Positions 44,783 to 46,364 of a stretch of DNA of 64,000 nt are shown piece after piece (the first letter of the stretch is position 1; the number at the start of each line of letters is the position of its first letter). The notes beneath the pieces are model-generated. The model did no database searches, was not told where the DNA came from, and worked only from the letters and a program-made list of their open reading frames with translations. The position numbers and the translations under genes are program-made. Where the stretch lies: positions 1-64,000 of the forward strand of contig RCSZ01000020.1 of the NCBI GenBank assembly GCA_014898425.1, written 5' to 3'. This DNA comes from Botryotinia globosa. Its lineage: Eukaryota; Ascomycota; Leotiomycetes; Helotiales; Sclerotiniaceae.

Positions 44783-46364
44783 ATGGCAACCCAAACACTC
44801 TCGAGATGGTACGCATATCCTTCCGATTTGTTTACTATCAAACTAACAATTCGAAGGACTTATTTAGACAATATCCGTCGAACTCCTGGACCATTTACTG
44901 ATGAGGAGTTTGATGGTAGCGAGGCATGCACTGCTCTCCTTGATCACATGAAGATCTTGTAAGTTTGGCTATTCTTGAAAATAAACAAAGAATGTATTGC
45001 TAATATGTCTCTAGGGTAATGTTGGTTGCCTAGAAAGTTCACAGAATAGAGCTCCGAATGCTAACGGAAATTAGTGGAGCGGGAGGTCTTGGTTGCGAGA
45101 TCTTGAAAAATCTAGCGCTATCAGGATTCAAGACGATTCACGTGATTGATATGGGTACTTTCTATCCAACCCAATCCGAGACAATAATCTAACTAAGCCG
45201 TTGTAGATACAATCGACGTTTCAAATCTGAATCGACAATTTCTTTTCCGCCATAGTGATGTTGGAAAGTCCAAGGCTGAAGTTGCAGCCAAATTTGTGGA
45301 GAAACGAGTAAAGGGTGTCACGATTGTACCGCATAATTGCAAGATCCAAGACAAGGATGAGGAATTCTACATGCAATTCAGCATTGTTGTATGTGGGTTA
45401 GACAGTATCGAAGCCCGACGATGGATTAATTCTAAACTGGTCGACATGGTTGATATGGAAAATCCGGACAGTCTGAAGCCATTGATTGATGGAGGTACCG
45501 AAGGTATTAGAATTGTTTCAAGCACTTAAAGCAAATTTGCTAACGATATCATCAGGATTCAAAGGTCACTCCCGTGTAATCTTACCGACCATGAATTCCT
45601 GTATCGAGTGTCAACTTGATATGCACACACCAAGAGCTGCAGTTCCTCTCTGCACGCTAGCTACAATTCCTCGCCAACCAGAGCATTGTATCGAGTGGGC
45701 TCACATTATGGCATGGGAGCAAGAGAAGCCATTTCCCAAGCTAGATAATGATGATCCAGAACACATTACTTGGCTTTACAAGAAGGCCCTAACTAGAGCG
45801 CAAGAATTTAACATCCTGGGTGTTACTTATTCCTTGACACAGGGAGTGGTCAAAAACATCATTCCGGCAATTGCCTCAACTAACGCAATAATTGCGGCAA
45901 GCTGCTGTAACGAAGCGTTCAAGATCGCAAGCAGTACTAACCCCTCTCTTGGTTTGGAAGAAAATTATATGATGTACAGTGGAAACGATGGTGTTTACAC
46001 TTACACCTTCAAGTTTGAGAAGAAGGACGACTGTCCCGTGTGTGGAAACCTGGCAAGAGATTTGACCATCGACCCCAATTTAACTCTTCAGGAGTTTATC
46101 GATTCACTTGCTCAGAGACCAGAAGCACAGCTCAAGAAGCCTTCAGTTCGTTCAGCCGACAATAAGTCTTTGTACATGCAGAGCCCGGAGAGCTTGCGTG
46201 TGAAGACTGAGCACAACTTGTCGAGGAAGATGGGAGAAATGACTGGAGACGGCGATGAGGTTGCAGTGACAGATCCGTCATTGGGCTCAGTCATGTTCAA
46301 GTACAGACTGAAATTTTCCAGGGCATTTGTGGCAGATGCTGCGAATGAGAGTGTGTCCGCTTAG
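44783..46364 (+). CDS. UBA3: NEDD8-activating enzyme E1 catalytic subunit UBA3
   Basis: Model: 44783-44808, 44857-44958, 45015-45020, 45075-45154, 45207-45503, 45556-46364, giving 439 aa. With Ula1/APP-BP1 it adenylates NEDD8/Rub1 and passes it to Ubc12 for cullin modification. Seen: the nucleotide loop KILVIGAGGLGCEILKNLAL (Gly46-x-Gly48-Gly49), the DTIDVSNLNRQFLFR block, LIDGGTEGFKGHSRVILP, zinc Cys pairs (CIEC; CPVC) and the catalytic Cys203 in PLCTLATIPRQPEHC. The C-terminal ubiquitin-fold part follows (LTLQEFIDSL). The 6-nt exon 45015-45020 is inferred: it restores Leu-Val-Ile of the first beta strand; skipping it keeps the frame but gives KIFGAGG. The donor after it (GTTGGT) is weak. 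Start ATG 44783 is the first possible one. Confidence 0.93.
45015..45020 (+). other. UBA3: Putative 6-nt microexon of UBA3
   Basis: GGTAAT lies between acceptor TGTCTCTAG (ends 45014; branch GCTAAT) and donor GTTGGT (45021). The next intron ends at AAATTAG (45074) with branch GCTAACG. It supplies the last base of Leu43, Val44 and two bases of Ile45. Flanking introns would be 56 and 54 nt, normal for this genome. Confidence 0.65.

What the first reader, a model, noticed from the sequence alone, without database searches (positions are those of the whole stretch)
44959..45074. A 6-nt microexon in the catalytic NEDD8 E1 gene UBA3
Seen: between the exon ending ATGAAGATCTT and the one starting TGGAGCGGGAGG lie two back-to-back intron-like units. 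Each has its own branch site (GCTAAT; GCTAACG) and acceptor, separated by GGTAAT. Including it gives KILVIGAGGLG, the canonical ThiF/E1 nucleotide-binding strand; skipping it keeps the frame but gives KIFGAGG, short of two strand residues. A 6-nt exon is close to the lower limit for spliceosomal definition, and a frame-preserving skip would make an apparently intact but probably inactive E1.
Basis: partly seen in the sequence, partly recalled or inferred. Interest (0 to 1): 0.75.

Follow-up and report, generated by a model that had tools for sequence, protein, structure and literature searches.

The report
Conserved six-base exon in fungal UBA3
In a grey-mould fungus, the gene for the enzyme that starts NEDD8 tagging contains an exon of only six bases, which supplies part of the enzyme's ATP-binding strand; protein records suggest the same tiny exon is old and is often missed when fungal genomes are annotated.

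Summary
Between 44959 and 45074 lie two abutting GT-AG introns (56 and 54 nt), each with a branch-like site, around GGTAAT at 45015-45020. Including it gives a 439-aa UBA3, 98% identical over its whole length to a Botrytis byssoidea protein. The two added residues end strand 1 of the ThiF fold. A restoring 6-mer arose in 30 of 20,000 shuffles, and with branch motifs in 1. Most likely it is a constitutive microexon spliced by intron definition.

New is its apparent age. Of 303 homologues fetched, 53 lack exactly these two residues, all with ascomycete names. In 17 of them Leu has become Phe, marking a TT|Y junction that shifting one GT-AG boundary cannot produce. These 17 span five classes, Lipomycetes included. 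None of 105 further proteins from a search outside Ascomycota shows it. I read this as one old 6-nt exon, often misannotated as skipped. No RNA, and no DNA of the other species, could be read; a functional skipped isoform has no support here. New member of a known kind; no listing seen reports it.

The parts
44783..44808 (+). UBA3 exon 1 (ATG start, 26 nt)
   Evidence: gene model; product matches B. byssoidea P0001 over its full length
44809..44856 (+). UBA3 intron, 48 nt, ACTAAC branch-like site
44857..44958 (+). UBA3 exon 2, ends ATGAAGATCTT (phase 2)
44959..45014 (+). upstream flanking intron, 56 nt, GTAAGT...GCTAAT...CTCTAG
45015..45020 (+). microexon GGTAAT: third base of Leu43, Val44, first two bases of Ile45
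   Evidence: shuffle control; homologue pattern
45021..45074 (+). downstream flanking intron, 54 nt, GTTGGT...GCTAACG...AATTAG
45075..45154 (+). UBA3 exon starting TGGAGCGGGAGG (GAGGLG loop)
45155..45206 (+). UBA3 intron, 52 nt
45207..45503 (+). UBA3 exon
45504..45555 (+). UBA3 intron, 52 nt
45556..46364 (+). last UBA3 exon with stop codon; holds the E2_bind domain
45016..45021 (+). competing donor-like GTAATG inside the microexon; its use would leave a 1-nt exon and a frameshift (hypothetical)
45043..45044 (+). alternative acceptor AG (CACAG) giving a third in-frame product (hypothetical)

Best explanation
GGTAAT is a real, normally included (constitutive) 6-nt exon of UBA3. Both flanking introns are short and each has its own donor, branch-like site and acceptor, so the spliceosome can pair sites across each intron (intron definition) and need not recognise the exon as a unit. 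The GTAAGT intron probably leaves first, then the GTTGGT intron. The exon supplies Val44 and Ile45, the end of the first Rossmann strand before the GAGG ATP loop. The same arrangement probably existed before Pezizomycotina and Lipomycetes parted, and is kept because its loss would damage the ATP site of the NEDD8 E1. Shown: sequence anatomy, reading frames, homologue pattern. Inferred: splicing in vivo, order of intron removal, age, loss of activity on skipping. My odds: inclusion as the main product 0.95; the old age 0.8.
For: Anatomy and frames. Shuffle control 30 of 20,000, and 1 of 20,000 with branch motifs. The included form is 98% identical over 100% to P0001 (B. byssoidea) and the three Botrytis records P0001-P0003 all carry KILVIGAGG. 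ThiF score 189.5 bits included, 180.8 skipped, 178.4 with the 45044 acceptor. In the set of 120 ranked by the included form, 103 have the full strand. Human UBA3 (1tt5) has KVLVIGAGGLG here. In a model of the B. cinerea protein, strand 41-45 is exactly KILVI. Age: 53 of 303 lack exactly two residues, 17 with Leu to Phe, in five classes. Traces in faulty models: P0030 (Golovinomyces) can be read as a retained second intron of 54 nt with the same ends; P0179 and P0132 can be read as an acceptor AG directly before the microexon (inference).
Against: No RNA for this genome. The second donor GTTGGT shows no genome-wide excess before branch/acceptor motifs: 45 matches against 56 for the pattern read backwards, and a scrambled hexamer gives 37 against 63; locally 1 against 1, 0, 0. 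It does match the donor consensus as well as three other donors of this gene (5 of 9). A 116-nt skip intron with the strong donor and the GCTAACG branch is also possible. The age rests on annotated proteins, not DNA; 36 of the 53 skip forms are Leu-type, which one shifted phase-0 donor could also give.
Confidence: 0.88

Rival explanations
1. Regulated switch: GGTAAT is skipped in a meaningful share of transcripts, yielding a stable KIFGAGG protein that binds ATP poorly and damps NEDD8 conjugation.
For: Skipping keeps frame; the second donor is atypical; a switch-like 20-nt microexon is published in Trichoderma Xlr2 (PMC11121469, passages); many public models show the skip form.
Against: No RNA evidence here. 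The skip models are what a predictor that cannot place a 6-nt exon would give. Three records with the same N-terminus, named Marssonina or Diplocarpon coronariae, have VI, GR and no insert (P0020, P0024, P0026), which points to annotation choice.
Confidence: 0.07
2. Single intron 44959-45044 (acceptor CACAG): the protein has KILIELRMLTEISGAGG and there is no microexon.
For: In frame and free of stops.
Against: None of the 302 motif-bearing proteins of 303 has such a linker; the only longer inserts are P0030 and P0132, and P0179 with a short one. Lowest ThiF score of the three. It would leave the GCTAACG and AATTAG signals unused and put Ser before the GAGG loop.
Confidence: 0.02
3. The microexon is real here but not old: the two-residue losses elsewhere are unrelated annotation slips at single introns.
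For: No DNA from those species was read; 36 of 53 skip forms are Leu-type and would allow a phase-0 donor misplaced by 6 nt (GTN ATN).
Against: 17 Phe-type forms in five classes need a TT|Y junction; the lost 6-mer R-GTN-AT neither begins with GT nor ends with AG, so one shifted GT-AG boundary cannot give it (inference). Penicillium has both types (P0130 Phe, others Leu), as TTR and CTN codons at one phase-2 junction would give. None of 105 proteins from the non-ascomycete search shows the loss, though animal models are also better annotated.
Confidence: 0.15

Closest known systems
One-nucleotide exon of Fusarium CYP621A P450 genes (PMC12940212; parts 1 and 2 of 3 read)
   Same: Tiny exon between two short fungal introns inside a conserved protein motif, inferred from homology and missed by gene models
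   Different: 1 nt, frame-breaking if skipped, one genus (20 Fusarium orthologues), confirmed by transcript reads; here 6 nt, frame-preserving, apparently much wider, no reads
Xlr2 microexon of Trichoderma virens (PMC11121469; passages)
   Same: Microexon in a filamentous ascomycete, not placed by most gene models
   Different: 20 nt, glucose-dependent inclusion shown by RNA-seq and RT-PCR, reported as conserved in Trichoderma; no regulation known here
Small conserved plant microexons, e.g. APC11 1 nt (PMC4674806, passages; PMC8831610, abstract and passages)
   Same: Very small coding exons kept over long times and pervasively misannotated
   Different: Land plants, backed by RNA-seq; here fungi, protein records only
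Spliceosomal twin introns (stwintrons) of ascomycetes (PMC7138796, passages; PMC6616335, outline and abstract)
   Same: Complex intervening sequence whose excision depends on intron definition
   Different: In stwintrons one intron interrupts a splice signal of another; here the two introns are complete and separate and the piece between them is coding

Membership tests
Spliceosomal microexon (constitutive) | Very short internal exon with complete introns on both sides | tested here: met
   6 nt; GT, branch-like site and AG on both sides
Spliceosomal microexon (constitutive) | Needed for the conserved protein sequence | tested here: met
   KILVIGAGG restored; 103 of 120 have the full strand; shuffle control
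Spliceosomal microexon (constitutive) | Present in mature transcripts | not testable with these tools
   no RNA data held
Spliceosomal microexon (constitutive) | Same exon in relatives at DNA level | tested here: inconclusive
   no fungal DNA found; proteins point to it indirectly
Switch-like alternative microexon (Xlr2 type) | Inclusion changes with conditions | not testable with these tools
   no RNA data held
Stwintron | Removing an inner intron assembles a splice signal of an outer intron that gives the right frame | tested here: not met
   both introns have complete signals of their own; the donor left at 45016 after removal of the first intron gives a frameshift
UBA3, catalytic subunit of the NEDD8 E1 | ThiF domain and C-terminal E2-binding domain | tested here: met
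   PF00899 189.5 bits and PF08825 96.8 bits, both over cut-off
UBA3, catalytic subunit of the NEDD8 E1 | Closest solved relatives are UBA3 | tested here: met
   the 8 best of 78 PDB sequences are human UBA3/E1C, E down to 3e-144
UBA3, catalytic subunit of the NEDD8 E1 | Catalytic cysteine (C203 in P0003; which Cys is catalytic is recalled) | tested here: met
   invariant in the 19 sequences and the 22; the window protein reads PLCTLATIPRQPEHC
UBA3, catalytic subunit of the NEDD8 E1 | Activates NEDD8 | not testable with these tools
   needs an assay

The most novel reading that the evidence does not exclude
A frame-preserving 6-nt exon, kept since the common ancestor of filamentous ascomycetes and Lipomycetes, works as a built-in brake on NEDD8 conjugation: skipping it makes a full-length UBA3 with a damaged ATP strand, and the atypical second donor sets how much of it is made.
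Probability: 0.07. Interest if true: 0.8.

Novelty: new member of a known kind. Interest (0 to 1): 0.48.

Why it matters
If the age holds, this is a very small, deeply conserved fungal exon in a core gene, and a clean natural case for how the spliceosome handles an exon too short to be recognised as a unit. It also exposes a recurrent error: 53 of the public UBA3 records fetched here lack two residues next to the ATP site, which would mislead structural modelling and mutant design. The signature (exact two-residue loss with Leu to Phe) suggests a cheap way to find hidden microexons from protein records alone.

Tried and rejected
Fungal DNA for comparison: a scan of genome contigs gave 2 loci, both titled bacterial, and a scan of viral contigs gave none. 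Strength of donor GTTGGT: the local count in 264 kb was too small to tell (76 anchors); genome-wide there is no excess. Other microexons of the same build: exon lengths 9 and 7 gave 0 matches; other lengths were not tried. Stwintron reading rejected (frame). Single intron to 45044 judged very unlikely. Structure: the B. cinerea protein P0003 (with VI) has strand 41-45 and helix 49-60; P0037 (Coleophoma, a skip-form record) has strand 52-56, which takes in the first Gly-Ala of the loop, and helix 61-70. This fits a damaged loop but is weak: mean pLDDT 71.3 and 68.1, 22-sequence alignments that I chose, different species. Literature searches; some searches listed only 30 of 61, 20 of 39 and 8 of 35 papers. 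No title or abstract start seen names a UBA3 microexon in fungi; most bodies were not read.

Full report
What is there. The window lies in a 45.7-Mb genome held in 27 contigs. The gene on the + strand has exons 44783-44808, 44857-44958, 45015-45020, 45075-45154, 45207-45503 and 45556-46364 (stop codon included). Introns are 48, 56, 54, 52 and 52 nt. The product has 439 aa with ThiF and E2_bind domains and matches human UBA3 over residues 7-420. The genome gives one E2_bind match, so UBA3 looks single-copy.

The microexon. GGTAAT completes the Leu43 codon, gives Val44 and starts Ile45. Of the single-intron options tried from donor 44959 to each AG up to 45079, two are in frame and free of stops: acceptor 45044 and acceptor 45074 (the skip); inclusion of GGTAAT is the third intact product. 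Keeping either intron gives an early stop, and the GT inside GGTAAT gives a frameshift. Inclusion scores best against ThiF (189.5 against 180.8 and 178.4 bits). In 20,000 shuffles a restoring 6-mer appeared 30 times and, with branch motifs, once; any AG-N6-GT appeared in 10.4%. The two-unit pattern occurs once in the genome, but was shaped on this site.

Relatives. Three protein searches, each listing its best 120, gave 303 different proteins. They were sorted by the residues before the G-A/S-G-G motif. Of the 120, ranked by the included form: 103 full strand, 12 lacking exactly two residues (8 Leu-type, 4 Phe-type), 4 other, 1 without the motif (a fragment). Of the 78 new ones, whose query was the skip form so as to rank such records first: 35, 41 (28 Leu-type, 13 Phe-type), 2, 0. 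Of the 105 new ones, whose query was an Ambispora protein turned into a skip form: 105 full strand. By name these 105 are mostly vertebrates, with a few Glomeromycotina, one plant, and one record without an organism name. Because two queries were biased, 53 of 303 is not a frequency. All 53 skip records carry ascomycete names. Classes were looked up for Limtongia (Lipomycetes), Candelina (Candelariomycetes), Coniocarpon (Arthoniomycetes), Lophium (Dothideomycetes), Golovinomyces (Leotiomycetes), Diaporthe (Sordariomycetes) and Penicillium (Eurotiomycetes); other placements are recalled.

Why this points to one old exon. In 17 of the 53, Leu has become Phe: Mollisia, Diplocarpon rosae, Erysiphe, Diaporthe, three Claviceps, Copromyces, Thielaviopsis, Trichoderma, Massarina, Lophium, Neodothiora, Penicillium argentinense, Limtongia and two Lipomyces. 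Phe never stands before the V/I-I/V-G-A/S-G-G strand in the 303. TT joined to T or C gives Phe, so the junction is phase 2 and the six missing bases should read R-GTN-AT. That 6-mer neither starts with GT nor ends with AG, so moving one boundary of a single canonical intron cannot remove it; skipping a separate exon can. This is inference from proteins. The 36 Leu-type records fit CTN codons at the same junction, but a misplaced phase-0 donor would also do. Faulty models add hints: Golovinomyces P0030 reads as if the second intron were retained, 54 nt long and ending AG before T-GGA; Candelina P0179 and Fusarium P0132 read as if an acceptor AG stood directly before the microexon. Three coronariae records with the same N-terminus show VI, GR and no insert (P0020, P0024, P0026).

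Paralogues. Eight ThiF matches elsewhere in this genome cover the profile positions of the two residues (about 25-26 by the alignment start), five of them without stops inside. The alignments were not inspected, so I say only that no split of this strand is evident there.

How it works. Intron definition is described for ascomycete complex introns (PMC7138796, passages). With two complete introns of 56 and 54 nt, a 6-nt exon needs no exon definition. The second donor matches the consensus at 5 of 9 positions, like three other donors of the gene, while the first matches at 7. Genome-wide, GTTGGT shows no excess before branch and acceptor motifs, which leaves room for some skipping.

Verdict. 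A microexon, most likely constitutive and very likely old, often misannotated. The prior art covers fungal microexons (PMC11121469, PMC12940212) but no listing seen reports this one. Its interest lies in its depth and in the annotation error it exposes.

Noticed in passing
window 46632-47720 (-): Convergent neighbour with RNA polymerase Rpb3/Rpb11-type domains (PF01193, PF01000), 362 aa open frame; looks like the RNA polymerase I/III subunit AC40 (name recalled).
   Followed up: partly
window 44014-44553 (-): Divergent 179-aa open frame upstream of UBA3 with no Pfam match.
   Followed up: partly
P0020, P0024, P0026 (Marssonina/Diplocarpon coronariae records): Three records with the same N-terminus differ only at this site among the residues compared (VI, GR, nothing before GAGG); the GR form is unexplained.
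   Followed up: no
P0004 (Sclerotinia sclerotiorum SS1G_02960): Besides lacking the two residues, this record departs from the others at about columns 195-215 of alignment A1, perhaps a second splice error.
   Followed up: no
P0121, P0122: A CAMPEP (eukprot) record and an Ancylostoma SUMO-E1-type record score well above the fungal UBA3 records in the region searches; the cause was not examined.
   Followed up: no
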